A stretch of 32,392 bases of DNA, taken from positions 1 to 32,392 of the IMG/VR virus record IMGVR_UViG_3300025769_000478. One strand, given 5' to 3'. The notes below the pieces were generated by a model. That model was not told where the DNA came from. It ran no database searches and was given only the letters and a program-made list of their open reading frames with translations. Shown here piece by piece: positions 2,039-31,962 of the stretch. Origin of the DNA: a virus. Within the stretch, counting starts at the first letter, position 1; the number at the start of each line of letters is the position of its first letter. Made by a program: the position numbers and the translations under genes.

Positions 2039-5000
2039 TTATACTCCAAAAATATTAAAGTCTTTTGTTCCAAAATCTGGAAATAATAAACCAAGGCCAA
2101 ATTTTGTTTTAGCTATATCTTCTTTAGAATCTAATTGCAATCTAACAGACTCTAACTCTTTGTCACCAAGAATAATTTGTAATGCTCTATCTGCAGCAGA
2201 TTGACTAGATACAAATGCATTACTCATTATATCACGTTCTCTTTGCCATATCTCATCTAGATTCTTAGCCGACAAAGCATTTATAGTTTTAGCAAAATCC
2301 ATGTTACTTTCGTTTTGAGCACTGGTATTTAACGTTGCAATATTTTGTCTCCATTTAGCATTAGCTTGAGCTATAACTAAACCATTTTGAGCATTAAATA
2401 TATCTCTTGCATTTTGCATCTCAGAATTAAACTGCCTCATAGCATTAGTACTATTTAAGTTAAACTGATCCATAGTATTAATTTGAGAAGCATTAAATTG
2501 AGATACTCCAGCTGATAATCCAGCAAAAAATTGATTAGTTTGATTTTCACTTGTTGCATTAAATTGAGATGCAGCAAACTCTTGGGCTGAGTCATTAAGT
2601 ATAGCAGAAATATTCTGCTGAGTCTTAAATACTTCAGTCTGCTGCTTATTACTTAAATTAGCCATGTCCATCTGTAAAAAATTTCTGGCATTTTCAACTT
2701 GAGCTGATTGTAGATTATTTAAACTGCTTAATTCTAAATTACTTAACGCAGCTGCTTCAGACATAAGTAATGCTTGTTTATTACTTAAATTTGTAAGCTC
2801 CATAGTATTTGCAGCTCTAGAGTTTTCTAAGGCTATTTGTTGATCTGCTGTAAAATTCATATTAGCTATTTCAGATACTTTAGCTGCATTTATAACTTTA
2901 GCTTGAAATTTTTGATCAAACTCCATACCTAAAAATTTAGATCTCTGTTCTGCTTTAAACAAAGCTGTTTGTTGTTTATTACCTGCATCAATTTGGGCAA
3001 TAGGTAGTGCAGCTTCCATTGCTGCCTGTATAACAGCTTGACCTGCTAAAGATGAAGCACCAAGACCTCTAGCTGCAAGCATCTGTGTAGCTTTTCTCAT
3101 AGAACCTGCAGCCCAAGCAGGTGTATCACCACCCTCAAACTGCGACATAAGACCTGCTAATTCGTCTTGTACAGATGCGGCTTGTACTTCACCAGTGCCG
3201 AAAGCTTCTCCAACTTTTGCTTGATCTACAGTTGCCCCACTAACTAACTCTCCAGTTCCCCCCGTAGTTGTATCTAAAGCTCTTCTAGGAACACCAGCTT
3301 CTCCAGCAACTTCTTGTACAGTTTTAGCTGTGCCTGTTTGAGCAGTCAGATCTGCTAAGTTAGTTGTATAGTCTTCTTGACCTGTTACATCTTTTGTTAA
3401 ATCTTTTAAAGTTTGAGCTGTTAAAGCATCCGTTTCTTTTTTAACATCTGGTTTAGTAGGATCAGCTTGAGCTTGTATTACAGGAGCCATAATAGGTTGA
3501 CCTGCAGTTTCAGCTGCACCTGCGGTAGCAACTTCAGCAAAAGGAGCTTGAGGAACAGTCATTCCTGCATCTACTGGTATAAAGTCCCCTGAAGTTGGTA
3601 TAATACCAGCTACACCAGCTTGTATTGGTTGCATAGTTTGACCAACAAGACCTTGACTCATAGCTTTAAACTGTTGTTCATTTATACCTCCAGGTTGACC
3701 TGTTGAACCTTGATCTCCTGTGTTACCAAGTCCTCCAGTTGTTCCTGCAGAATTACCTTCTCTATCTGTAATATCATAAGAAGTTCCATTCCAAGTGTAC
3801 TTATACCCTGTACTTGGATCAGTTGTGACAGACCCTATTTCTGGTGGATTATTAGGGTCAGGTGACAGAGTAAAATAAGTTGGTATACCACCATAAGAAG
3901 GTACACCTGCACCTCCTGCAGCTTTCATCATACGTTCTTCTTGTGGATTTACGTAAGCAAGCCTATGAGGTTGTCCTGCTATATTAGCTTGATTAGGTAC
4001 TATTGTACCTTCTGCAGCACCCATACGCATCCCACCCATGGTTGTCATAGCCTGCCTATATTTACCCATACGTGCTGCTGAGGATGGATTGGCTTGTAGG
4101 AAATTATCAAGTTGTTGTGGAGGTCCGTCAAACCCTAAAAATTTTCTAGCTAATGTAACATCACCACCTTCTGCCATATTTACAGCTTGAGCAGTTGAAC
4201 TTTTAGCAAACTTTCTTGTAAAACCTGGGGGTACATTTGTAATTGGCCTACCATTAAATTCTGTTACCATTATTTCTTGAGTAGTTAGCCTATTTATATA
4301 AGGAACTTGTTGATAGCCTACAGAAATATATTCACCTGTGCCTGGGGCATTAGTTATTAAATTTTCTGGTACAGCACCTTGAGTTCCTGCATAATGTGTT
4401 TTATAACTTATTTGATCGGGAACTGCAGATAATCCTGCAGTTTGAAGTGGTTGGTTAAATGTACCAGTTACAGCAGCTTGAGGAGCTACATTACCTGCAA
4501 CATATCCTGTCGTAGGAGAAGTAATTGAAGTAGTCATATCTTTAACAGTTGGTTGAACATAAGTACTACCACTAGTTGTTGCTGTAGTATCTACTCCACC
4601 TCCAGTATATGTAACTGGTGCAACACCTTGAACTACTGTTTCAGGAGTATTAGGATCTATCGGGGCTACTTCACCTGGACCTATTTCTATTACTTCTGTA
4701 GAAGGTATTGTAGAAGTAAAATCTCCTCCAGATACTACAGGCTCTTCCGGTTCCTCAGGATCTTTTGGCTCAACAGGATCTACTGGCTCAACAGGATCTA
4801 CTGGCTCAACAGGATCAACTAGATCTACTAAAGGATCTACTAAAGGATCTACTACAGGATCTACTACAGGATCTACTACATCATCATCTATAACAGGTGC
4901 GGTTAAATCTAGTGTTGCTTTTAAATCCTCAAAAGCTCCAAGAACTCTGTTTACATTAGTGTTTTTATTACCCTTTTTCTTAGGAGGAGTTGTTACTCTT

Positions 5001-5323
5001 TCGATAGTTCCATCAGCACCTATTTTATTAATAAAGCTAGAGTTTTTACCAGATACAGCTACGTATTGATCACCATTTGCATCTGTAACACTGTTATAAA
5101 CAGCATAACCTTTTCCCTCGTTAAATCTTTGAAGGTCTGTTGATGTTCCTGCTTGTCCATTTTTATAAAGAATAGGAGTTCCTGTAGTAGCTTTATCAAA
5201 GTCACCAGACTTTTGAAGCTCTGCTTTAGCGGCTGCAGCTTCTGCTGCTATTCTTTCTTGTTCTAACGCCCTATCACTTTGCTGTTGAGCTTGATAATTT
5301 TTTTCATATTCTGTAAGCGCCAT
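2039..5323 (-). CDS. Large Ala/Gln/Asn-rich internal virion or ejection-type protein
   Basis: A 1094-residue protein with ATG at 5323 and AAGGA upstream. In order: a charged helical N-terminus (residues 1-40); a small folded segment (about 45-130); a Pro/Asp/Val/Glu linker (about 148-186) built from tandem repeats; a long Gly/Thr/Pro/Val low-complexity region; a short MAEGGDVTLARKF segment near 381; and a C-terminal 360 residues that look like one long alpha-helix rich in Ala, Gln, Asn and Met, with recurring QFN and LSNKQ motifs. Long helical, non-enzymatic proteins after the tail genes fit an ejected or tail-internal protein. I see no lytic or peptidase motif, so the role is inferred. Confidence 0.8.
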   Translation of the reverse strand: MALTEYEKNYQAQQQSDRALEQERIAAEAAAAKAELQKSGDFDKATTGTPILYKNGQAGTSTDLQRFNEGKGYAVYNSVTDANGDQYVAVSGKNSSFINKIGADGTIERVTTPPKKKGNKNTNVNRVLGAFEDLKATLDLTAPVIDDDVVDPVVDPVVDPLVDPLVDLVDPVEPVDPVEPVDPVEPKDPEEPEEPVVSGGDFTSTIPSTEVIEIGPGEVAPIDPNTPETVVQGVAPVTYTGGGVDTTATTSGSTYVQPTVKDMTTSITSPTTGYVAGNVAPQAAVTGTFNQPLQTAGLSAVPDQISYKTHYAGTQGAVPENLITNAPGTGEYISVGYQQVPYINRLTTQEIMVTEFNGRPITNVPPGFTRKFAKSSTAQAVNMAEGGDVTLARKFLGFDGPPQQLDNFLQANPSSAARMGKYRQAMTTMGGMRMGAAEGTIVPNQANIAGQPHRLAYVNPQEERMMKAAGGAGVPSYGGIPTYFTLSPDPNNPPEIGSVTTDPSTGYKYTWNGTSYDITDREGNSAGTTGGLGNTGDQGSTGQPGGINEQQFKAMSQGLVGQTMQPIQAGVAGIIPTSGDFIPVDAGMTVPQAPFAEVATAGAAETAGQPIMAPVIQAQADPTKPDVKKETDALTAQTLKDLTKDVTGQEDYTTNLADLTAQTGTAKTVQEVAGEAGVPRRALDTTTGGTGELVSGATVDQAKVGEAFGTGEVQAASVQDELAGLMSQFEGGDTPAWAAGSMRKATQMLAARGLGASSLAGQAVIQAAMEAALPIAQIDAGNKQQTALFKAEQRSKFLGMEFDQKFQAKVINAAKVSEIANMNFTADQQIALENSRAANTMELTNLSNKQALLMSEAAALSNLELSSLNNLQSAQVENARNFLQMDMANLSNKQQTEVFKTQQNISAILNDSAQEFAASQFNATSENQTNQFFAGLSAGVSQFNASQINTMDQFNLNSTNAMRQFNSEMQNARDIFNAQNGLVIAQANAKWRQNIATLNTSAQNESNMDFAKTINALSAKNLDEIWQRERDIMSNAFVSSQSAADRALQIILGDKELESVRLQLDSKEDIAKTKFGLGLLFPDFGTKDFNIFGV
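4767..4877. repeat. In-frame tandem repeats (18-bp then 12-bp units)
   Basis: Three 18-base units (plus strand GGCTCAACAGGATCTACT, the third with one change) run from 4767 to 4820. A 9-base partial unit follows, then two copies of AAAGGATCTACT and two of ACAGGATCTACT up to 4877. All unit lengths are multiples of three, so copy-number change keeps the host gene in frame. On the minus strand they encode a DPVEPV and DPLV/DPVV linker in the 1094-residue virion protein. Confidence 0.9.
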
Positions 5324-12981: not shown

Positions 12982-14535
12982 TTATAACCTATCTCCTACC
13001 CCAAAAGTAATCACTAGACCTTGTATACTGTGTGATGCTTTTGTATCATTAGTTACATATCTAAAAGATACTGATTTTCCTGAACCTGAAATATTTGTCC
13101 TACGTACTGGTGAAGGATCACCATCAAAAACAGCCCCACTTGTCGCATCATCTGCTGCAAAAGCTGCCTCGTTATAATATGCTGCTGCATTATCATTTGT
13201 TAATGTAAAATCTGTAGGACTTAAAATGTTTGAATCTTCGTAATCATAAACAGCAGACATAAATAACTCGTTATCACCCTCAGAACGCATGTATGTTGCT
13301 ACGTTGTAAAATATTTTTCTTTGTTCAGGATCTTGCATATAGTAATAAGGTGTTTGATAAGAACTAAATATCTCACTTCCACCAAAACTATTACCTTTTT
13401 CTTGTCTATATACTTTACCTGTAGTATCTCCATGAAGAACAAATTCATTTTGACCTATGTAACCACTGTCAGCACAAGTGGCCTGTATTCCAAGTAATTG
13501 TCCAAACTCTAAACTTATACCGTTGGGAGTTTGTCTAAAACCCCCTATAATTCCTTGAGTATCTGCCGCTGCAAAAAAGTATCTAAATTGTGTTTTCTTT
13601 CTAATTATTACAGCATTTAAACCTTCAAGATCAACATCAAAAATAACATCAGCAAATATAGACTGAATATTTTTTGACACTGTTTCTAAATTAACATCTC
13701 CAATTTTATCTGTACCTGAAACAGGTCTGATACCATCTTGAGATAAGAAAAGTAGATCACCACCTATCTCTAAAACACTGTCTGAAGCTAAACATCCTAA
13801 GTCATCTGTAATAGTTTCTAATACAAAGTTAGAAATATTATTACCAACAAGCTTACGAATGTTATTAGTGCCAAAAATGTACAGAGCATCTCTAAAAGTC
13901 TTTATAGCTACTATAGAAAAACCTACGTTTATTACTCCAGATCCATTTGCTGCACTAAAGTCTGTTTCTGCATATGGAGCACTAAAGTATAAGTTTGTAT
14001 TTTCTGCAGGATCACCTGCTAAAAACATGTGGTTTTGAAATACAGCAGAAAATTTAGGGTCTGTGGGAGCATCAGCATGAGTAATCTGAGTGTATGTAGT
14101 GCCATCGTATGTAGCTGCAGGGTTTATACCGTCTGTAAGAATAACCTTTGGGCTACCAAAGTTGTATTTTGTAAATCTAACCTTAGTTACACCTGACATT
14201 GTAGGTGAGCCAGAGGTACTTACAGCATCCCATGCACTTGAGGTATTATTCCACTTATGTAAATAGTTATTACCACTGGAAGGGGTACGGCAAGCTAATA
14301 TACCATCATTTATACCGTTTATTACACAAACACCAAGTACATTTCCTGTACCTGTAACTGTACCATAATCATTGCTAAATCCGTTTATTTTACGGTAGCC
14401 ACCAGTAACAGCAGGTTCATAATTAGTAAGCCTAATTGCAGAACCAGGTTGTCTTTCACCTTGCGACAACACATCCCTGTTTGTATTTAGCCCACCTTCA
14501 CAGTAGGCTTTAAAAGAGGCTAAATTATCTGGCAT
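12982..14535 (-). CDS. Tail hub/nozzle protein, P22 gp10-like
   Basis: A 517-residue protein with ATG at 14535 inside a TAATG overlap with the upstream gene. It reads as a chain of short beta strands with recurring hydrophobic-aromatic blades, for example KVRFTKYNFGSPKVILTDG, HMFLAGDP followed by NLYFSAP, and ALYIFGTNNIRKL. This is typical of beta-propeller tail proteins. The length is close to P22 gp10 (about 470 residues), which seals packaged DNA and extends the tail. Its position right after the gp4-like adaptor and before the fibre fits that role. The assignment rests on architecture and order, not on a unique motif. Confidence 0.75.
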   Translation of the reverse strand: MPDNLASFKAYCEGGLNTNRDVLSQGERQPGSAIRLTNYEPAVTGGYRKINGFSNDYGTVTGTGNVLGVCVINGINDGILACRTPSSGNNYLHKWNNTSSAWDAVSTSGSPTMSGVTKVRFTKYNFGSPKVILTDGINPAATYDGTTYTQITHADAPTDPKFSAVFQNHMFLAGDPAENTNLYFSAPYAETDFSAANGSGVINVGFSIVAIKTFRDALYIFGTNNIRKLVGNNISNFVLETITDDLGCLASDSVLEIGGDLLFLSQDGIRPVSGTDKIGDVNLETVSKNIQSIFADVIFDVDLEGLNAVIIRKKTQFRYFFAAADTQGIIGGFRQTPNGISLEFGQLLGIQATCADSGYIGQNEFVLHGDTTGKVYRQEKGNSFGGSEIFSSYQTPYYYMQDPEQRKIFYNVATYMRSEGDNELFMSAVYDYEDSNILSPTDFTLTNDNAAAYYNEAAFAADDATSGAVFDGDPSPVRRTNISGSGKSVSFRYVTNDTKASHSIQGLVITFGVGDRL

Positions 14536-15827: not shown

Positions 15828-16901
15828 TTACGCTGCGTTATATTTAGCAGTTACGATTGCTTCTGGACGAAGAATCTTTCTGCCGTATAGATGCATACCA
15901 CGAACGATGTCAGCAAAGCTGTCAGGATCACGATATGTTTCAGTCTTACTGATCTGCTCTGCAGTTGCTACTGCTGAGTCATGACCTGCAACGATCACAC
16001 CATAGTTAGTGTTTTGGTTTGCAGAACCTGCAGTTCCTGAACCTGTACCTACGTGAGGAAGGTTTGAGGAAGTATAGAGTCTGAAGCCATGCATGTTGTT
16101 CAGTACTAGACCATTGCGTAGAGCACCTGATTCACCGTAATCAGCGTTTAAGAATCGAGAATCCTCATCGGCTAAGATTTCCATGAATACTGGGTCAACT
16201 ACGAGCCACCTACCTTGTGAATCAACTTGTTGTTGATCTAACAAACGCTTCATGCGTGATATAATCATCGCAGGAGAAACAGTTGCTGTTGGTAGTGCAG
16301 TTGCACCTGGTAAACGTGCTGCTACAGGAATTGAGTGATCTCCTGCAGAAGACGTTGTGATGTTACCAAATGAAGACTTGATAAGTTTCATTGAAGATAA
16401 CAACTCGTCTGAACCTGCTGTTGATACAGCTTTTGAACCATTTGTTTGGTCATTAACTGTGTCAGCATCGGTGTGTAGTGCAGACTGTTTGTAACCTGAT
16501 AGATAGCCAAGAACTTCTTGGTCATGCTGATCAGCTAAACGATATGCTGCACGATTGGTAGCAAGATCCATAAAGTTGACATGTGAATGAGCTTCCTCAA
16601 TATCGTCAATCTTAAAAGCATAGTAGTTAGCTTTATCAACGACTAGAGAAAAGTCTTCATCGTCAAGATCTTGTGCATTAACCTGTGTACCCCTAGCATA
16701 TGCGCTCACTGAGATTTCAGGTTCTTTGATGATTTTCACCGTATCACCTTGGGCAGCTATCTCCCCAAAATAATCTGAATTGGTGATGTCACCACATACT
16801 GTACTCTTGCGGAATGCAAGTTGTACTTTTTTGGAGTATATGATACTGGAAAAGTTACCGTTAGGTAAGTTACCGTATCCTCCTGTTGTTGTAAAAGCCA
16901 T
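15828..16901 (-). CDS. Major capsid protein (HK97-type fold)
   Basis: A 357-residue protein with ATG at 16901 preceded by a near-perfect AGGAGG. Features of HK97-fold coats are present in order: an N-terminal arm, an E-loop-like beta segment around GDTVKIIKEPEISVSAY, the P-domain helix region (NRAAYRLADQHDQEVLGYL), a central RWLVVDPVFMEILAD strand-helix, and a C-terminal A-domain segment with YGVIVAGHDSAVATAEQI and RGMHLYGRKILRPEAIV. It sits downstream of scaffold, as in P22-like and many marine podoviruses. A sigma70-like promoter and a roughly 200-base leader precede it. There is no sign of a fused protease. Confidence 0.92.
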   Translation of the reverse strand: MAFTTTGGYGNLPNGNFSSIIYSKKVQLAFRKSTVCGDITNSDYFGEIAAQGDTVKIIKEPEISVSAYARGTQVNAQDLDDEDFSLVVDKANYYAFKIDDIEEAHSHVNFMDLATNRAAYRLADQHDQEVLGYLSGYKQSALHTDADTVNDQTNGSKAVSTAGSDELLSSMKLIKSSFGNITTSSAGDHSIPVAARLPGATALPTATVSPAMIISRMKRLLDQQQVDSQGRWLVVDPVFMEILADEDSRFLNADYGESGALRNGLVLNNMHGFRLYTSSNLPHVGTGSGTAGSANQNTNYGVIVAGHDSAVATAEQISKTETYRDPDSFADIVRGMHLYGRKILRPEAIVTAKYNAA

Positions 16902-17141: not shown

Positions 17142-18041
17142 TTATCTAGCTTTGCCAGATACATCGTAAACAAATTTACCCGAACGGATAGCTTTGTTAA
17201 TTTCGTCAGATCGTTCTTCAAACTCCATATCGGACATTTTTGCAACTTCTGACTCACGAATTGCGTCATTTGCATCTTCTACATCTACTTGTGTCTTAGT
17301 ACGTTTAGTTACAGTAGAAGCTGCTTCTTTAGCTTTTGCTTTCTTTGCAGTCTTAGTTAGACCTTTGTCTACTTTGTATAGATCTATAACACGGACTACA
17401 GAAGCAGGGTCATCTGAGTTTTCATATAGTGCATCTTGTACCCATTTAGGTTGTTCTTCAACCCAAGTATGAAACTCTTCGGATGCACGTAGGTCATCAA
17501 AGTCTTCATGAGATTTACGTATAACACTTTCAGCTTTAGTTCTTTCAGCTTCTGTTTGAATCTTATCAAACTCTTGCATACGAGCTTCAGCTTTACTAAA
17601 CATCTCTTGAGCTTTTTTAGCAGCAATGGTTTCTACAATACCTGCTACGTCTGGATACTCTTTAGCCCATTGTTCTATATCTTCATCAGACTTAGGTGGT
17701 ACAATAGATTCTTTTTCTAATCTTTTTTCAAAGGCTTGAAACTTTTCATCCCATTCCTTTTCTTTATCTTGCATGTGGCGTCTTAGATCACCGTAACGCT
17801 TTTTAAACGATTTTTCTTCAGCAGATAACGTTTCTTCTTTAACTTCTGTATCGGCCTCTTTTTCTTTGGAAGCTTTTTCTTCTGGTTGCTGTTCTTCGTC
17901 GTCTTCTCCACGTTGTTCAGCTTCAAGTTTACGGATCTCCTCTTCTTCAGCTTCCATTCGGCTACGTTTCTTTTCGTGATTGTAACCTCTGTCTACAAAT
18001 CCTGCTGTCTTCTGTGTTTCTACTTCTGCTAATTCAGGCAT
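17142..18041 (-). CDS. Capsid scaffold protein
   Basis: A 299-residue, highly charged protein with ATG at 18041 and AAGGA upstream. Residues 25-85 are Glu/Lys/Gln-rich, then come coiled-coil segments (KKRYGDLRRHMQDKEKEWDE and following). A small ordered part follows around IEQWAKEYPDVAGIVETI, and the C-terminus is basic to mixed (TKTAKKAKAKEAAST). A charged helical protein of this size directly before the coat gene is characteristic of phage scaffolds. The C-terminal region probably contacts the coat. No protease motif is seen. Confidence 0.88.
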   Translation of the reverse strand: MPELAEVETQKTAGFVDRGYNHEKKRSRMEAEEEEIRKLEAEQRGEDDEEQQPEEKASKEKEADTEVKEETLSAEEKSFKKRYGDLRRHMQDKEKEWDEKFQAFEKRLEKESIVPPKSDEDIEQWAKEYPDVAGIVETIAAKKAQEMFSKAEARMQEFDKIQTEAERTKAESVIRKSHEDFDDLRASEEFHTWVEEQPKWVQDALYENSDDPASVVRVIDLYKVDKGLTKTAKKAKAKEAASTVTKRTKTQVDVEDANDAIRESEVAKMSDMEFEERSDEINKAIRSGKFVYDVSGKAR

Positions 18042-18086: not shown

Positions 18087-21000
18087 TTATTTTTTCTTTT
18101 TGCCTTTGGTCATTAGACCACCTTTATTTATTAAACCTGCTCTTGGATCACCTTCATCTTTAGCTTTTTGCGTTGGTGATTTAGCTTCAGAAGATGGTGC
18201 TTTTTCTCTTCCAATTTCTGCTATAGACTTTCCAGTTCTTTTAGCTTCTGATTTTATAGCTGTAACTTTTGCTTTTGCTAAATTTGTTTTATTTGCCCTA
18301 TCTTTTTGTATTTTTGTTCTTAAAGCATCTACATTTTTAGTTTGAAGAGGTCTTTTAGTTTTAGAAGTACCTGCTGCCCATGAGTTAACATCTTCATAAC
18401 CAGTTCCTACAAATACCCCATTAACTTTGTTCATAACATTCTTGCTTCTAGGTTTATAGGCCAAGTTTACAAGACCACCACCTTTTTCTAAATAAGTATC
18501 TATACCTTTTTGTATCTCAACAGCTAAGTCTGCATGTTCTTTAGAACCCGCTTTACCTTTTGCTTCTGCAATAATTTGAGCAGCTTCCATATCATACAAA
18601 CCATTTAAACCTTTAAAACTTTGAAATGCTCCTGCTAACATTGCACCTGGTAAACCAGCAATTGCAAAACCTGCACCTCTTAAAAATCTACCAGACCCAG
18701 ATAGATTACCTCTTTCAGCTTGAGCTACAAACTGTTTAATATCATCTACATCATTCCAATCTTTAAGGTCTTGACCCCAAGGTTTTACTTCTCTATCTCC
18801 GTCTCCACCTGGAGGTGTTATTGAGGTACCACCACCACCACCTCTTTTAGATAGATACATATTGTATTCAGATAAAGTCATAGTGTACTTATCGGCTATT
18901 GCTTTTGTTTTTTCTGCTTCACTATTTACAGTCCTAGTTTGACCAGCTGTATTATATAAAGTAATAGGAGTAAAAGTAGGAGTTTCAGGTTGTTGATTAG
19001 GATTTTGAACTCCGGTACTAGAATCTCCAAAAATAGAAAAACCTAATGGGCTACCTACATAATTTTCAGCTTGGGCAGCACTTCCTGCAGATAACATTTG
19101 TTGCTCAACTTGATTAGCAGTTACACTTCCTGCAGCTTGATAACCTCTTACTTGACCACCTTGGGACATACCCATCATCTCTTGTATAGCTTGCATTTCT
19201 TCTGGAGATAACTCTTCGTTATTTACTGGACCACCTGCAGGTACTGGCTCACCACCTATTCTACCATTCATTTCCATCTCTTGCAAGCCCATTTTTGCTC
19301 TTTCTCGCAAATCTTCAAAAAACTTTACACCATAGTAACGAACAACATCAGCAGGGACTACGTATTCACCTTCTGATAACTGTGCAGGTATATCATCTCG
19401 TACTTCTTCAGCCATAGAACCTGAAGGTACATCATTACCTGATACTGGATCTACATCCATACCATCATCTGTTAGACCACCTTCATCCATAAAGGCCATC
19501 TGCATTTGTTCTTCCATCATGGCTCCACCTTTGTTTAATCTTTTTGCAGTGAAATGTTTAACAAACTCGTCATACGTGGGATTATTTTTTTCAAGAAAAT
19601 TTGATATTTCTCGTGAAGTTTGTTTTCCTGGATATGCTTCCGATGCACTTGAATGTTCCATAAACATTTGTTGAATTTGAGGTGCAGATATTCTTTTACC
19701 ATCTTTAAACTCAATAACATTTGTTTCTCTTCCATCAATTTCTACAGAATAAATGTCATAAGTACGACCTTTATTTTTATCTAAATCAGGTCTTGGTTTT
19801 GGTTTAACATTAGGGAATGGTTTATTTCTTTCAGCTTGTTCTACAAAAAACTGATCTCCTGCTTCTGCTCTAGGAGATACATCTACCTCTGCTTCTGGTC
19901 TTGGTTCTGGTCTCACTGTGTCGCCTCCTTCGGCAAAGTTTTTAGGTTCTTTACTTGCATACTTTAAAATATTTTGTGGGGAGTAAGGTCCATCTACTGT
20001 TTCTGCACCATTCCAGTATTTTACTTCAACTTTTACAGAGGGAATACCTAATTCAGAAGCAACAGCAACTCTAGTGTTTCCCTCAATAATGTAGGCTTTA
20101 CCTTTATGGTTTACTCCTACAACTACCTTATTTCCTTTTTGATTTGGATCAAAACCACCATCTTGAGCATCTTTTAAAAGTGCTTGATATTTAGAGTCAG
20201 AAGCATCACGAATTTCATTATTAGCTCCTTTAAGAGAAGCTAAAAATTTTGAGTCTAAAAATAAAGATTTGTCATTATCCATCATTCCTAAAGTAGCAGT
20301 AGTTGGCCCATTAAAAAACTTTTTAGTAGCACCAGTGCCTCCACGTTCTGCATCTTCTTCTGCATATCTTTGTTGTTTTTTAACCCAGTCTTCGCCACCC
20401 TCTCGACCTTTAGTTGCAGGATTATCTTGATAATACCCAAAGTCATCTAGTGTTAAACTTTGTTTCTTCCTGATAGCTCCTGCACTTGGTGTTTCTATCT
20501 TATTGGCTGCTTTCGTATATTTATTGTAAGATTTACGTATAGCTTCTTCTTTTACAGCCCAATCTACTAAAGCTCTATCTAGTCCTTCATCAAATATATA
20601 TTGAAAAATTTCATTGTCTGGTAACTGTTCAAAAGCTGTCATGGATCTGTCATCAAAAAGCATATCGTCCATCATACCTGGACCCATCTTATTTAATAGA
20701 CCTCTTTGATTTGATATACTTTCTGCTGCTTCTTCTACTGTGTCAAATCTAACAGTAGCTTCTACAGCATTTTTATAGTCATCAAGACTTACAACACTTT
20801 TATCTGATGTTGTTAATATATCTTTTAACGATTCTGTTATTGCAGGTATTCTTGCATCAATAGCATCTTGTACTCTCTTTTCTGCTGCTTCTACAGCTTT
20901 CTGACCGCCTCCTGCTGCCAAAACACTTCTTTCTACATTAGCTAGTTCTGCAACTTGGGAGTCTGTAAGATTTAATCTACCCCAATCAAAATCAACCCTA

Positions 21001-22883
21001 TACATATCTTCTAATTCAAAAGGTTTTTCTTTAGGTCTTATTCTAATAGATCCTGCATCAAATTCTGACGTAGCTTCTGTAGGTTTTACATTATCAATAA
21101 TACCAAATTTCTTTTTTACAGTATCTACAAGATTAGTTGACTCTGGTTCTCTTCTTGGTTTTATTTCATACTCAAAAGGGTCTACGCCATACTTACCTTG
21201 GTATTGGTACATATTACCTTCTTTTTCAAGCATACCTGCTCTAGCATCGACTGGAAATATATCTTTAGCTGTAGCACCAGACTCAAGCTGTGCAATAGTC
21301 ATAGAAGGGTCTAACATTTCTTCAGTAAGACGTGCCTCTATTTCACCACCTGCACCTTCGTAAAAGTATGTTTCTATCTTAGATCTTTCTCGATTTACAT
21401 CATAAACATCATCAGCTAATTTACCTGATACTAAACGTTGTTCTATTCTTTTTCTATTAAGTCTACCAATTAAATTAGTTCTATTTGCAGCTTTTTGTAC
21501 TATTGATACAGGAACTCCATATTCTCTTGCTGTAGAAGCCCAAGTTACATCTTGTTTTAATTCATCAGGTTTGGAATAATGTCTATTGTATATTTCTATT
21601 TCTTGTTTTGTAGTTAAACCTGGTAATGGATTATCACGTGACTTCTTTTGTGCTTTTGTAAGTTGTATGCTAGTTAATTTTAATTCTTTTTCTGCCTCAT
21701 CAAACTTTTTTGAGATCGGTTTCTTTTTACCACGTAACTCTCTGTCTTTATTATATACAAGGTCTGGTGGAATATCGCCAGATGATGTACCCCTAACAAA
21801 ATTTTCTTTCTTTTGAATTACATGTTGAAGTTCGTGAAGCACGGTCTTTTTTAATCCGTCTACATTAGTAACATACTTACCATTTACCATTGACCTGTGT
21901 GCATCTGCACCCATATTAATTTCAAGGGTATTTGTAAGCTCATCATAACTTCCTAGAAGTTTGATATTTTCTCGATTTGGTTTTGCATTATAAAATGCAA
22001 TTTCAAAATTTTTAAGTTCGGGATATTTTTCATAAAATTCAGGGTGATCAAAAATATCAGACACTTTAACATTTTTCCAATCAGTTGGATTTCTTGCATC
22101 TAATGACATATTTATATTTGAAATTTCATCTAGATCTTTTAACGATGCTTTAGTATCATCTATAAAGTAACGCCATTGACCATCTGCAGGATCTACATAC
22201 CACCCAGTCTCACTCCAGATTTTTTTATTTGCATCATATGGTATACTTCCACTTTCTTTATAAGAATCTTCTTTCTTTAAAAGATCAATAGCTTTTTTAA
22301 GGTTTTTATCCTTAGCTGCACCTTTCATACCAACGCCACCAAAGAGTCTTAAAGAACCTTCAGGAACTTTAAATGGAGTTGATGCAGCACCTACACCTGC
22401 AAGTGTACCAAAAATATCTCCGTAGCTAGCTCCAGATTTCATTGATTGTTTAATTTGTTCTAGAGTTCCAACTGCCGCACCTTTAACAAAATCTGCTACT
22501 TGTTCTTTATTAGGTAAAAAAGGATTTTCAAGATAACCTTTTACACCATCTAATGAGCTAATAATACCATCTCTAAGTTTTTCTCTTTCGACTCTTTGGT
22601 CAGGACTTGTAGCAATTGTATAGGTTTCACCAAATTTATTTTTAAAAGCACGAACATCAGGATCTGAAGTAGATATTTCTATATCATCTGTGGAAGCATT
22701 CACAGGACGTTGAAAAAACGGAACATTATTTAACGGATGATTAGCTCTTCTTTTTTCTTCAAGCTTACTTTCTGCAAAATCTTCTTTAGCTCTACCTGTA
22801 TATTTTTCAACTTCCTGATCTAAACCTTCAGGAGTATAGCCAAAAACTTTCATCTGCTCTGTAGTACTAACCATTAATGTCAT
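18087..22883 (-). CDS. Giant polyvalent protein: metallopeptidase-like and ParB-like domains
   Basis: A 1598-residue protein. ATG at 22883 opens the frame, but AGGG lies at better spacing for a second in-frame ATG at 22874. Residues about 225-245 (TGWYVDPADGQWRYFIDDTK) lead into a domain with a zinc-peptidase motif HELQH (350-354) and a later GEIEAR (513-518), whose Glu could be the third ligand. This matches the LPD23-type domains of large polyvalent proteins. Residues about 918-975, with IIEGNTRVAVASELG, resemble ParB/sulfiredoxin-type nuclease folds. Residues 1165-1195 carry LSEGEYVVPADVVRYYGVKF, a motif I recall from marine-phage virion proteins. A hydrophobic Gly/Ala patch lies near 1401-1420, and the Lys-rich end is NKGGLMTKGKKKK. 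It lies between portal and scaffold, so packaging inside the virion and ejection into the host is plausible but unproven. Confidence 0.85.
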   Translation of the reverse strand: MTLMVSTTEQMKVFGYTPEGLDQEVEKYTGRAKEDFAESKLEEKRRANHPLNNVPFFQRPVNASTDDIEISTSDPDVRAFKNKFGETYTIATSPDQRVEREKLRDGIISSLDGVKGYLENPFLPNKEQVADFVKGAAVGTLEQIKQSMKSGASYGDIFGTLAGVGAASTPFKVPEGSLRLFGGVGMKGAAKDKNLKKAIDLLKKEDSYKESGSIPYDANKKIWSETGWYVDPADGQWRYFIDDTKASLKDLDEISNINMSLDARNPTDWKNVKVSDIFDHPEFYEKYPELKNFEIAFYNAKPNRENIKLLGSYDELTNTLEINMGADAHRSMVNGKYVTNVDGLKKTVLHELQHVIQKKENFVRGTSSGDIPPDLVYNKDRELRGKKKPISKKFDEAEKELKLTSIQLTKAQKKSRDNPLPGLTTKQEIEIYNRHYSKPDELKQDVTWASTAREYGVPVSIVQKAANRTNLIGRLNRKRIEQRLVSGKLADDVYDVNRERSKIETYFYEGAGGEIEARLTEEMLDPSMTIAQLESGATAKDIFPVDARAGMLEKEGNMYQYQGKYGVDPFEYEIKPRREPESTNLVDTVKKKFGIIDNVKPTEATSEFDAGSIRIRPKEKPFELEDMYRVDFDWGRLNLTDSQVAELANVERSVLAAGGGQKAVEAAEKRVQDAIDARIPAITESLKDILTTSDKSVVSLDDYKNAVEATVRFDTVEEAAESISNQRGLLNKMGPGMMDDMLFDDRSMTAFEQLPDNEIFQYIFDEGLDRALVDWAVKEEAIRKSYNKYTKAANKIETPSAGAIRKKQSLTLDDFGYYQDNPATKGREGGEDWVKKQQRYAEEDAERGGTGATKKFFNGPTTATLGMMDNDKSLFLDSKFLASLKGANNEIRDASDSKYQALLKDAQDGGFDPNQKGNKVVVGVNHKGKAYIIEGNTRVAVASELGIPSVKVEVKYWNGAETVDGPYSPQNILKYASKEPKNFAEGGDTVRPEPRPEAEVDVSPRAEAGDQFFVEQAERNKPFPNVKPKPRPDLDKNKGRTYDIYSVEIDGRETNVIEFKDGKRISAPQIQQMFMEHSSASEAYPGKQTSREISNFLEKNNPTYDEFVKHFTAKRLNKGGAMMEEQMQMAFMDEGGLTDDGMDVDPVSGNDVPSGSMAEEVRDDIPAQLSEGEYVVPADVVRYYGVKFFEDLRERAKMGLQEMEMNGRIGGEPVPAGGPVNNEELSPEEMQAIQEMMGMSQGGQVRGYQAAGSVTANQVEQQMLSAGSAAQAENYVGSPLGFSIFGDSSTGVQNPNQQPETPTFTPITLYNTAGQTRTVNSEAEKTKAIADKYTMTLSEYNMYLSKRGGGGGTSITPPGGDGDREVKPWGQDLKDWNDVDDIKQFVAQAERGNLSGSGRFLRGAGFAIAGLPGAMLAGAFQSFKGLNGLYDMEAAQIIAEAKGKAGSKEHADLAVEIQKGIDTYLEKGGGLVNLAYKPRSKNVMNKVNGVFVGTGYEDVNSWAAGTSKTKRPLQTKNVDALRTKIQKDRANKTNLAKAKVTAIKSEAKRTGKSIAEIGREKAPSSEAKSPTQKAKDEGDPRAGLINKGGLMTKGKKKK

Positions 22884-23073
22884 CCCTAAGTCTTAGCATT
22901 GATCTGAGCATACGTATCTCACCTTGAGCACGATAAACTTCTTCTATATCGTTAAGTTGCTCAAGTCGTCTATGAACCTTATCTATTCTACTTTGTATCT
23001 CTTCCAGAAAAGGATTGTACAACTCTGGATTGTTAATAAAAGGTTTTAAAGTGTTATTCACGATTAGTTTCAT
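22867..23073 (-). CDS. Small helical protein between portal and polyvalent gene
   Basis: A 68-residue protein with ATG at 23073 in an ATGA overlap with the portal stop, and a weak AGG upstream. Residues 20-65 form a charged amphipathic helix (FLEEIQSRIDKVHRRLEQL, then VYRAQGEIRMLRSMLRL) that probably makes a coiled coil. The end overlaps the polyvalent gene by 17 bases. Small helical proteins after the portal often act as head-assembly or portal-associated factors, but I do not recognise the family. Confidence 0.75.
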   Translation of the reverse strand: MKLIVNNTLKPFINNPELYNPFLEEIQSRIDKVHRRLEQLNDIEEVYRAQGEIRMLRSMLRLRDDING

Positions 23074-25181: not shown

Positions 25182-26744
25182 TTAGTATCCAAATGTGGGA
25201 TCTGATGCTTGAAAGCCTGTACGTTGTGATGCAGGATCAAAATCAAATATGTTACTACGTGGTCTAGTCATTATACCATACCTTAAGGCATCATACAAGT
25301 GGTCTTCTGCGTGGGTGTCAACATCCTCTGGATTCTTTTTATCTAAAGGAATAGAGGGTAGCTGAGATATAAGATTAGTGCAATTAGAAAAAAACACAAG
25401 TCTAGGTTCCTCTGTAAATTCATCTACTTGCAATCGTCTGTGTAACTCATTTTTACCTGCTACACGAGAGCCTCTTGATCTATCTGAAGGTCTCCAACGA
25501 CAACCTTTTAAAATCATTTGTTCTGCTAGGCTTGGGCCAGTATCTCCACGTTTATGCCAAAGAGATGAGTCAAGAACTCCGTAACGTATATTCTCCCCTG
25601 ACTCATTTTCTATCTCCAGTACCATGTCAGCTAGGTCAGTAGCTGTGACCTTTGATACATATAGTTCTCTGTATACTACTAGCTGTTCAGATCCTGGAAC
25701 CATAGTAAACCAAAGAATACCAGTGTATGAACCATAACCATAATCACAAGCTCTAAAGTGAACCCAGTTAGAAGGTATCTCATAAGGCTCTACTACGTGT
25801 ATGTTTCTATTAAACTCAGGAAAAGCTGCACCTTCGTTTATATCCCAATCACCTTCGAGCAGTTGTCTACGTTGATGTTCAGGTAACGACAGAAGATTGG
25901 CTTCGTATAAACCATCGTCTGATAGATAAGGGTTGTCGAAAAGGGTGGCAGGGATAAACTTACGTTTGAACAGAGGCTCACCCTCTCGACTGTGACCTTT
26001 AGGCCACTGTATCACTTCCCCATTTTCATCAGTAGCATGGAACGAGTTATTAGGCACTTGAGGGTCAATAAACGTTCTTTTTACCCACTGATGGCCTGGA
26101 CCGCCAGGGTTGCTAGTCGCTCTCATATACAGTGGCAAACCTGAAGCCCTTGTTGTACGGAGACGTGATCTCATATAATTCCATGCGTAAGGTGAAGGCC
26201 ATTGTGTAAGTTCATCAAAGCCAATCCAGTTAAAGGCTTGACCTTGGTATCTCATAACGTCATCCTCTCTGTCGAGGTATGACATCCACAATGTAGCACC
26301 TGATGGAGCTACCCAAGTTTTATCTCTTTCCATAAACTTTATTCCAGGTATAGCTTTGGGATAAAGTTGTTTGCTTACTGATATAAGCTCTCTAAGCTCT
26401 TCTGTGCTCCTACGAACAAGTAGCATTCGTGCATTTGGATTCCCCAAGTACCGCACTGGGTCTGCAACCATCGCATAAGACTTACCACCACCTGCTGCTC
26501 CTCCATAAAGAACTTCTTGTTCTGTTGCTGCTAAAAAACTAGTCTGAGGTCCAGGGTTAGGCTCAAAGATAACTTCTCTAGCTTTTTCAAAGTCTATCTC
26601 TTCAGGCTTAGGTTGGGCTGGAACTAACTCTTTCTCTGTAACCGAGTCTTTGGGTTTCAAGCTTTTCCGCTTTTTGTAACGCTTCTTTGTACCTTTGGGC
26701 GAGGTAACGTTGAGTTGAAGCTTCGTTCTTACGTTGTTGCTCAA
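25182..26744 (-). CDS. terL: Terminase large subunit
   Basis: About 520 residues, with both activities visible. ATPase: Walker A GGAAGGGKS (81-89), Walker B WIGFDE (173-178), and the coupling motif ATSNPGGPG (209-217). Nuclease: Asp in RACDYGYG (334), LDSSLWH (392), and EDHLYDALRYG (Asp481/485) as RNase H-like metal ligands. No ATG exists before Walker A. The best start is a TTG at 26744 with AGAGGG six bases upstream, which makes a 137-base overlap with the previous gene. A basic N-terminal stretch (KKRYKKRKSLKPK) lies in the overlap. The protein cuts and translocates DNA into the prohead. Confidence 0.93.
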   Translation of the reverse strand: MSNNVRTKLQLNVTSPKGTKKRYKKRKSLKPKDSVTEKELVPAQPKPEEIDFEKAREVIFEPNPGPQTSFLAATEQEVLYGGAAGGGKSYAMVADPVRYLGNPNARMLLVRRSTEELRELISVSKQLYPKAIPGIKFMERDKTWVAPSGATLWMSYLDREDDVMRYQGQAFNWIGFDELTQWPSPYAWNYMRSRLRTTRASGLPLYMRATSNPGGPGHQWVKRTFIDPQVPNNSFHATDENGEVIQWPKGHSREGEPLFKRKFIPATLFDNPYLSDDGLYEANLLSLPEHQRRQLLEGDWDINEGAAFPEFNRNIHVVEPYEIPSNWVHFRACDYGYGSYTGILWFTMVPGSEQLVVYRELYVSKVTATDLADMVLEIENESGENIRYGVLDSSLWHKRGDTGPSLAEQMILKGCRWRPSDRSRGSRVAGKNELHRRLQVDEFTEEPRLVFFSNCTNLISQLPSIPLDKKNPEDVDTHAEDHLYDALRYGIMTRPRSNIFDFDPASQRTGFQASDPTFGY

Positions 26745-29366: not shown

Positions 29367-29816
29367 TTAACCTTTCTTCTTAGCCATGCCACCATAAAAC
29401 ATTCCTGTTTTACGCATGTCATTCATTTTAGTCATTCCACCACCCATGTAGCCTGATTTTTTATGGGACATACCACCATGTTTATAGCCCATCTTTTTGG
29501 CTACCTCTGGTGCTTCTTTCTTTAAGGCTTTCATTCCTTCATTCATTGGTTTTTTCATTGCGATTCCCCCTTCGTTAGCTCTGAACTTTTTTACTTTGTC
29601 TGCAACCTTTTTAGGTTGAGCCACAAACTGCTTACCTGCCTTCGTGCCTTCTCGTTTAGCTCTGGTTGTAGCTGCATACTCACTGCTGCTAAGAGACTTA
29701 ATAGCCTTATCAGGGAGATAACGTTCACCAGTCTTAGCACTAGGCTTACCACTTTTAGTTCTCCACTTTTGTTTAGTCCAAGACTTAAGACTTTTTTGTG
29801 GGCTTTTTAGACTCAT
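29367..29816 (-). CDS. Basic conserved phage protein with Gly/Met/Lys tail (DUF5872-like)
   Basis: A 149-residue protein from the ATG at 29816, which has AGAAGG six bases upstream. An apparent extension upstream reads through the neighbour and is ignored. Residues 1-85 (SLKSWTKQKWRTKSGKPSAK, GERYLPDKAIKSLSSSEYAA, QFVAQPKKVADKVKKF) match a basic family shared by cyanophages and pelagiphages, which I recall as DUF5872. Residues 87 onward form a second unit, MKKPMNEGMKALKKEAPEVA, ending in Gly/Met/Lys repeats (KHGGMSHKKSGYMGGGM). The second unit has its own internal start (29558). DNA or RNA binding is likely; function unknown. Confidence 0.8.
   Translation of the reverse strand: MSLKSPQKSLKSWTKQKWRTKSGKPSAKTGERYLPDKAIKSLSSSEYAATTRAKREGTKAGKQFVAQPKKVADKVKKFRANEGGIAMKKPMNEGMKALKKEAPEVAKKMGYKHGGMSHKKSGYMGGGMTKMNDMRKTGMFYGGMAKKKG
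29558..29574 (-). promoter_or_regulatory. Strong internal ribosome-binding site and in-frame start
   Basis: Inside the 29367-29816 gene the minus strand reads GAAGGGGGAATCGCA before an in-frame ATG at 29558. The G-rich block is a strong Shine-Dalgarno at a spacing of about seven bases. It would produce a separate 63-residue protein (29367-29558) consisting only of the Met/Gly/Lys second unit. Usage is inferred. Confidence 0.5.
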
Positions 29817-29955
29817 TGTGAACCTTCTGTATTGCAAAGTTAGCAGACAAGCTTGCCCCTTTATGGGCAACAAACTTACCTGTATGTTTCATTAACTTAT
29901 AACCACCATCAGGCTGTTTCATCCAGTGGTATCCTTTTGGTGCGTTTACTTTCAC
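29785..29955 (-). CDS. Small basic conserved phage protein
   Basis: A 56-residue protein with a GTG start at 29955, in a GTGA overlap with the upstream gene's TGA and with GGAGG nine bases upstream. Longer readings back to 30021 lack a ribosome-binding site. The sequence KGYHWMKQPDGGYKLMKHTG then KFVAHKGASLSANFAIQKVH is a compact basic family I recall from marine phages. Function unknown. The end overlaps the next gene's start (29816) by 32 bases. Confidence 0.75.
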   Translation of the reverse strand: MKVNAPKGYHWMKQPDGGYKLMKHTGKFVAHKGASLSANFAIQKVHNESKKPTKKS

Positions 29956-31761: not shown

Positions 31762-31962
31762 TTATTTTTTCTTAGTAGGTTTCTTTTTAGTTAAACCACC
31801 CTTAGACATACCAGATCTACCTGATTTTTTACCTTTAATGACTTCTTTTTTTACTAAATCTTTGATTTGTTTTTTAATATTGGATGTAGGTTCCATATCG
31901 TCAGGAAGTAAAAGCCTTAATAATTTTGATACGTCATCTTGATTTCTAGGTGCTTTTGCCAT
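31762..31962 (-). CDS. Small basic protein with Lys-rich tail
   Basis: A 66-residue protein with ATG at 31962 and GGAG seven bases upstream. Residues 10-45 form a charged helix (DVSKLLRLLLPDDMEPTS, IKKQIKDLVKKEV), then a very basic tail ending SKGGLTKKKPTKKK. The tail resembles that of the polyvalent protein (NKGGLMTKGKKKK). It lies between endolysin and spanin genes. No known family; nucleic-acid or membrane binding are both possible. Confidence 0.75.
   Translation of the reverse strand: MAKAPRNQDDVSKLLRLLLPDDMEPTSNIKKQIKDLVKKEVIKGKKSGRSGMSKGGLTKKKPTKKK

What the first reader, a model, noticed from the sequence alone, without database searches (positions are those of the whole stretch)
18087..22883. 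A 1598-residue polyvalent protein with metallopeptidase and ParB-like domains inside the head operon
Seen: HELQH at 350-354 with a downstream GEIEAR (513-518), an EGNTRVAVASELG segment at 934-946, and an EGEYVVPADVVRYYG segment near 1171-1185, all in one frame between the portal helper and scaffold. Known: large polyvalent proteins combine such domains and are delivered into cells with mobile DNA. Inference: this protein is packaged and ejected, then acts on host proteins (peptidase) and DNA (ParB-like nuclease) early in infection. Its size and place among head genes are unusual.
Basis: partly seen in the sequence, partly recalled or inferred. Interest (0 to 1): 0.78.

Follow-up and report, generated by a model that had tools for sequence, protein, structure and literature searches.

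The report
Marine phage protein with swappable cargo
A very large protein of a common type of marine phage carries a predicted zinc peptidase and a ParB-like domain on a constant tail-end that resembles phage tape-measure proteins, and relatives swap these front-end domains for cell-wall-cutting enzymes and others, so it is probably packed in the particle and injected into the host.

Summary
In detail: a 1598-aa ORF (minus strand, 18087-22883) lies between portal and scaffold genes of an HMO-2011-type marine podophage. The LPD23/HELQH...GEIEAR metallopeptidase is well supported (Pfam 9.4e-8; 53-sequence alignment with invariant H350, E351, H354, E514, E516; AlphaFold pLDDT 90). The EGNTRV segment is a ParB/sulfiredoxin-fold domain; nuclease activity is not shown. 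Two corrections: residue 515 is Ile (candidate ligands are E514/E516), and EGEYVVPADVV belongs not to ParB but to a separate core that matches tape-measure-protein families. Size and place are not odd either: HMO-2011-type phages regularly have a protein here, with N-terminal domains that differ even between phages whose portals are 92-94% identical. Other copies carry CHAP/NlpC-type, SleB, ART or methyltransferase domains. The constant part is the tape-measure-like core plus, in 50 of 61, a Lys-rich NKGGLM...KKKK tail. Best reading: a packaged, ejected polyvalent protein with exchangeable cargo on a constant chassis. Packaging is inferred; an LPD23 relative (phage H66 gp60) is annotated as found in virions by mass spectrometry. 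New variant of a known kind.

The parts
18087..22883 (-). slot protein, 1598-aa polyvalent protein (P0001)
   Evidence: ORF and translation
22344..22883 (-). residues 1-180, N-terminal segment shared with close relatives before the exchangeable part
   Evidence: 73-91% identity in L003, L006, L116, L117 and absent from others
21219..22286 (-). residues 200-555, LPD23 plus zincin-like metallopeptidase with a long coiled-coil insert
   Evidence: Pfam LPD23 9.4e-8; 53-sequence alignment A6; AlphaFold pLDDT 90.3, pTM 0.79
21822..21836 (-). HELQH 350-354, predicted zinc-binding helix
21330..21347 (-). GEIEAR 513-518, candidate third zinc ligand (E514 or E516)
19956..20453 (-). residues 811-976, ParB/sulfiredoxin-fold domain, EGNTR motif at 934-938
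   Evidence: 22 viral loci; pLDDT mostly about 90 or above; Foldseek neighbours nearly all ParB/Srx superfamily
19242..19511 (-). residues 1125-1214, constant tape-measure-like core
   Evidence: phrog_3547 tape measure 1.6e-6; PDB 8zdo tape measure 9.9e-4; 588 viral stretches encode a relative
18624..18686 (-). residues 1400-1420, most hydrophobic stretch of the protein
   Evidence: Kyte-Doolittle scan
18090..18128 (-). residues 1586-1598, NKGGLMTKGKKKK C-terminal tail
   Evidence: tail of this kind in 50 of 61 slot proteins
22867..23073 (-). 68-aa conserved ORF between portal and slot protein
   Evidence: 99% identical in L003 and L007
23070..25172 (-). portal protein
   Evidence: phrog_332 1.1e-73, Pfam SU10_portal 1.9e-26
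17142..18041 (-). scaffold-like protein
   Evidence: phrog_13678 5.3e-52 (unnamed family) and position before the coat gene
15828..16901 (-). major head (coat) protein, P22-like
   Evidence: phrog_267 8.4e-62
25182..26744 (-). terminase large subunit
   Evidence: phrog_979 7.1e-58, Pfam Terminase_6N

Best explanation
The gene encodes a polyvalent virion protein of an HMO-2011-type marine podophage, built as exchangeable N-terminal cargo on a constant C-terminal chassis. The chassis is a tape-measure-like core (DPVSGNxVPxGSxxEEVRDDIPAQLSEGEYVVPADVV...), a low-complexity linker with one hydrophobic stretch, and a Lys-rich NKGGLMxxKKKK tail; it probably docks the protein inside the head or at the portal during assembly. 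On infection the protein is expelled with the DNA. In this phage the cargo is an LPD23 zinc metallopeptidase and a ParB/Srx-fold domain. The peptidase most likely cuts the polyprotein itself to free its parts, or else a host protein; the ParB/Srx domain probably binds or hydrolyses a nucleotide and may nick DNA early in infection. Shown: domain content, conservation, gene place, cargo exchange, tape-measure relationship of the core. Inferred: packaging, ejection, zinc binding, cleavage, and the target of each domain.
For: LPD23 and the invariant H-E-H...E set; AlphaFold pLDDT 90 with HELQH mid-helix and GExEAR on a later helix; viral fold matches are LPD-domain proteins (E to about 1e-8) plus weak SprT-like zincins; PDB profile match to a neutral metalloprotease at the HEXXH helix, 0.0014. 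ParB/Srx fold. Tape-measure core. [quoted passage not shown] Other slot proteins carry peptidoglycan-hydrolase domains: TIGR02594 in 10 of 65, SleB Hydrolase_2 in 3, NlpC/P60 in 2, which fits delivery across the envelope. LPD23 relative H66 gp60 is annotated as verified by mass spectrometry as part of the virion. Cargo exchange between phages with 92-94% identical portals: L003, L006, L008, L009.
Against: No virion proteomics for this group was found. Foldseek against the PDB gave no significant zincin match for the peptidase model; hits were dominated by its coiled-coil insert. ParB/Srx matches are consistent but each has E above 0.05. An HExxH motif need not mean a protease: the N4 vRNAP structure paper notes it also occurs in radical-SAM-linked HExxH proteins (PMC12633501). 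The core is short and partly low-confidence in the model, so docking is a guess.
Confidence: 0.68

Rival explanations
1. Host-directed effector: the peptidase and ParB/Srx domain are ejected and act directly on host proteins and DNA.
For: T4 Alt is a packaged, injected effector, and Iyer et al. allow effector peptidases (PMC5512222); cargo exchange between near relatives looks like host-interface diversification.
Against: Much of the identifiable cargo in other copies is peptidoglycan hydrolase rather than cytoplasmic effector; no target evidence; self-processing is the commoner proposal for this peptidase class.
Confidence: 0.3
2. Assembly factor: a head-assembly protease or scaffold helper that acts during morphogenesis and is not ejected.
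For: Gene lies between portal and scaffold; no separate prohead protease was recognised among the ORFs searched in this window.
Against: The peptidase is present in only 14 of 91 slot proteins held (E below 1e-20) and some slots have no N-terminal cargo, so it cannot be a required assembly protease; peptidoglycan hydrolases in the same slot do not fit an assembly role.
Confidence: 0.12
3. Tape-measure or ejectosome structural protein whose N-terminal domains are passive or decayed.
For: Core matches tape-measure families; a hydrophobic stretch near the C-terminus.
Against: Catalytic residues are invariant over 53 aligned sequences; podophages have no long tail to measure.
Confidence: 0.12

Closest known systems
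Phage polyvalent proteins (Iyer et al. 2017, PMC5512222)
   Same: Several unrelated enzymatic domains in one large protein coded among late virion genes; zincin-like peptidase as common hub; ParB/Srx domain; peptidoglycan hydrolases in relatives.
   Different: Here a constant tape-measure-like core and Lys-rich tail mark one fixed slot next to the portal, with the N-terminal domains exchanged between near-identical phages.
Pseudomonas phage H66/F116/LKA5-type giant proteins with LPD23 (PLxRFG proteins)
   Same: Same LPD23-HELQH-GEVEAR unit; H66 gp60 annotated as verified in virions by mass spectrometry.
   Different: Those are much larger single proteins (the H66 gp60 gene is 11.4 kb) in another gene context; spacing between HELQH and GEVEAR is 38 residues there against 163 here.
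Phage P1 DdrB
   Same: ParB/Srx-like domain with a zincin peptidase in one packaged protein (PMC5512222).
   Different: Domain order is reversed and no Pfam DdrB-ParB match was obtained here.
Podophage ejection proteins (T7 gp14-16, P22, N4 gp50; review PMC8954989)
   Same: Late head-region proteins, variable between phages, some with wall-cutting domains, expelled with or before the DNA.
   Different: No sequence match to those families was found in the libraries searched.
Siphophage tape measure proteins
   Same: Shared motif GPGTGxSDSIPAxLSxGEFVxxAxxV.
   Different: No tape-measure body; the motif sits in a podophage protein.

Membership tests
Polyvalent protein (phage type) | two or more domains of disparate activity in one polypeptide | tested here: met
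   LPD23 peptidase and ParB/Srx fold
Polyvalent protein (phage type) | coded among late virion genes | tested here: met
   between portal and scaffold/coat
Polyvalent protein (phage type) | packaged and delivered with the DNA | not testable with these tools
   only indirect: MS note on LPD23 relative H66 gp60
LPD23 (PF18838) | score above Pfam gathering cutoff | tested here: met
   32.2 bits against cutoff 27
Zincin-like metallopeptidase | HEXXH on one helix and a conserved Glu on a following helix | tested here: met
Zincin-like metallopeptidase | fold match to a solved zincin | tested here: inconclusive
   no significant PDB fold hit; weak SprT-like hits among viral models; profile hit to 7bb8 at 0.0014
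Zincin-like metallopeptidase | zinc binding and proteolysis | not testable with these tools
   needs purified protein
ParB/sulfiredoxin superfamily | ParB/Srx fold | tested here: met
   top Foldseek hits PadC, Srx, KorB, Noc, SerK, ParB, probabilities up to 0.97 though E above 0.05
DdrB-like ParB nuclease | match to the DdrB-ParB family model | tested here: not met
   no such Pfam hit at E up to 1
DdrB-like ParB nuclease | DNase or NTPase activity | not testable with these tools
   needs an assay
Tape measure protein | tape-measure C-terminal motif | tested here: met
   phrog_3547 1.6e-6; 8zdo 9.9e-4
Tape measure protein | long helical body in a long-tailed phage | tested here: not met
   podophage gene set; the body is enzymatic domains

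The most novel reading that the evidence does not exclude
HMO-2011-type phages, among the dominant marine viruses, keep a dedicated cargo slot beside the portal: a constant docking and ejection chassis (tape-measure-like core plus Lys-rich KGGLM tail) on which N-terminal enzymes are swapped by recombination, so that one delivery address serves peptidases, ParB-like domains, wall hydrolases, ADP-ribosyltransferases and methyltransferases.
Probability: 0.45. Interest if true: 0.72.

Novelty: new variant of a known kind. Interest (0 to 1): 0.52.

Why it matters
If the constant core and tail are the packaging and ejection address, they turn an open question (how large proteins are chosen for the virion and sent through the portal) into a direct test by fusion or deletion in isolates such as CRP-9. 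The exchange of cargo between near-identical phages would also give a natural catalogue of early-infection enzymes used against Roseobacter, SAR116 and SAR11 hosts, in phages that are abundant in the ocean but whose early infection is hardly studied. The link between the tape-measure motif and a podophage head-region protein suggests a shared module for ejected proteins across tail types.

Tried and rejected
No atomic coordinates were available, so distances between His350, His354 and E514/E516 were not measured. PDB sequence search with the ParB-like profile found nothing. A first ParB-plus-core alignment (A7) misaligned ParB rows and was replaced by A8. Considered and rejected: that EGEYVVPADVV belongs to the ParB domain; that size and place are unusual; that the peptidase is a required head-assembly protease. 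Literature searches found no description of this slot protein in HMO-2011-type phages, but most subscription papers are not held.

Full report
Observation. One slip: residue 515 is Ile; GEIEAR is 513-518, so the invariant acidic residues are E514 and E516. The window is a whole IMG/VR record of 32392 bases. Portal, terminase and coat proteins place it with HMO-2011-type marine podophages: the portal is 64-73% identical to those of Roseobacter phages CRP-1, CRP-2, CRP-9 and CRP-13 and of Puniceispirillum phage HMO-2011.

Peptidase. Pfam gives LPD23 at 219-249 (9.4e-8, above cutoff). In 53 aligned sequences H350, E351, H354, Q357, G365, Y508, G513, E514 and E516 are invariant. The GExEAR motif follows HExQH at 38 to 211 residues; 60 of 65 relatives have it against 0.26 expected from shuffles. 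AlphaFold gives pLDDT 90.3 and pTM 0.79, with HELQH in the middle of a helix after a small sheet, GExEAR on a later helix, and a long coiled coil inserted between. Matches among viral models are LPD-domain proteins (E to about 1e-8) and, weakly, SprT-like zincins; the PDB fold search found no zincin and was dominated by helical coiled-coil matches; a profile search of PDB sequences found neutral metalloprotease 7bb8 at 0.0014 over the HEXXH helix. I take a zincin-like metallopeptidase as likely, not proven.

ParB-like domain. Residues 811-976 form a conserved unit in 22 viral loci, with GANxE, VGVNHKGxA and EGNxRxAxA motifs. The model has pLDDT mostly about 90 or above there. Nearly all of the best 40 Foldseek hits belong to the ParB/sulfiredoxin superfamily: PadC, sulfiredoxins, KorB, Noc, serine kinase, ParB; single E-values are weak but the agreement is strong. 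These neighbours are NTP-using enzymes or switches, so nuclease is only one option. No DdrB-ParB Pfam match was found. The domain is removable: several slot proteins have the peptidase without it or it without the peptidase.

Constant core. EGEYVVPADVV is not ParB. It lies in a core (1125-1214) found in the slot protein (in CRP-738 the next ORF) of all 12 HMO-2011/CRP isolates examined and, in a shorter tape-measure-like form, of Pelagibacter phages HTVC115P and HTVC103P; it was not seen in HTVC033P or in the more distant Rhizobium and Sinorhizobium phages. 588 viral stretches encode a relative. The core of this protein hits phrog_3547 tape measure (1.6e-6), and the HTVC115P version hits eight tape-measure families at E below 1e-3 (best 6.7e-11). 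A profile of cores matches the tape-measure protein of PDB 8zdo (9.9e-4), twice in that chain. No Pfam model covers it. After the core come a low-complexity region, one hydrophobic stretch (1400-1420) and a Lys-rich tail, NKGGLMTKGKKKK. Such a tail ends 50 of 61 slot proteins whose 3' end is held.

Slot and exchange. The same position (portal, small ORF, slot protein, scaffold, coat) holds proteins of 335 to 1395 aa in cultured phages and 446 to 2156 aa in 46 complete viral-contig copies; the part before the core varies far more in length (sd 449) than the part from the core onward (sd 136). In phages with portals 92-94% identical to this one the N-terminal part is a different peptidase subtype (L003, L006), something unassigned (L009), or only a linker (L008), while core and neighbours stay similar. 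Across 65 N-terminal parts or whole proteins: LPD23 in 8, TIGR02594 amidase-like in 10, SleB hydrolase in 3, NlpC/P60 in 2, DUF6782 metallopeptidase in 2, ART-PolyVal in 1, methyltransferase in 1. A profile built from LPD23 relatives finds 14 peptidase-bearing slot proteins among the 91 held at E below 1e-20.

Mechanism. Iyer et al. 2017 (PMC5512222) argue that such polyvalent proteins are packaged and injected, that zincin domains probably cut the polyprotein, and that ParB/Srx domains act early in infection. The slot's place, its frequent wall hydrolases, and the mass-spectrometry note on H66 gp60 agree. My addition is the two-part plan: constant tape-measure-like chassis, exchangeable cargo. 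That the core or tail is the packaging address is inference.

Novelty. The HMO-2011-type survey that was readable lists ten core genes, several without known function, and does not describe this protein (PMC9038755). Individual domains are known kinds; the fixed slot with exchangeable cargo and the tape-measure link are the newer part.

Verdict. A genuine polyvalent protein; interest 0.52; new variant of a known kind.

Noticed in passing
window 31762-31962 (-) and 29367-29873 (-): Two small late proteins end in GGLTKKKPTKKK and GGMAKKKG, like the tail of the slot protein; a shared C-terminal signal is possible.
   Followed up: partly
window 2039-5323 (-): 1094-aa protein rich in Pro/Asp repeats with an AEGGDV motif and no family match; perhaps another internal or tail protein.
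   Followed up: no
window 12982-14535 (-): Best PHROG match is labelled amidase (phrog_5107), but its other matches are virion structural proteins; the label looks doubtful.
   Followed up: no
L003 5246-5863 and 5776-8457: The slot gene of this near relative is split between two frames, either a frameshift or a sequence error.
   Followed up: no
L217, L219, L220, L221: The core turns up in MAGs labelled Blastopirellula, Euryarchaeota, Bacteroidetes and Gammaproteobacteria; probably phage contigs binned with them.
   Followed up: no
L015 and L019, downstream of the slot gene: CRP-13 and CRP-345 carry a methyltransferase gene between slot protein and scaffold, and their slot proteins end in a CCFIMLEARYG-type domain that looks like the CFI-box instead of the Lys tail.
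   Followed up: partly
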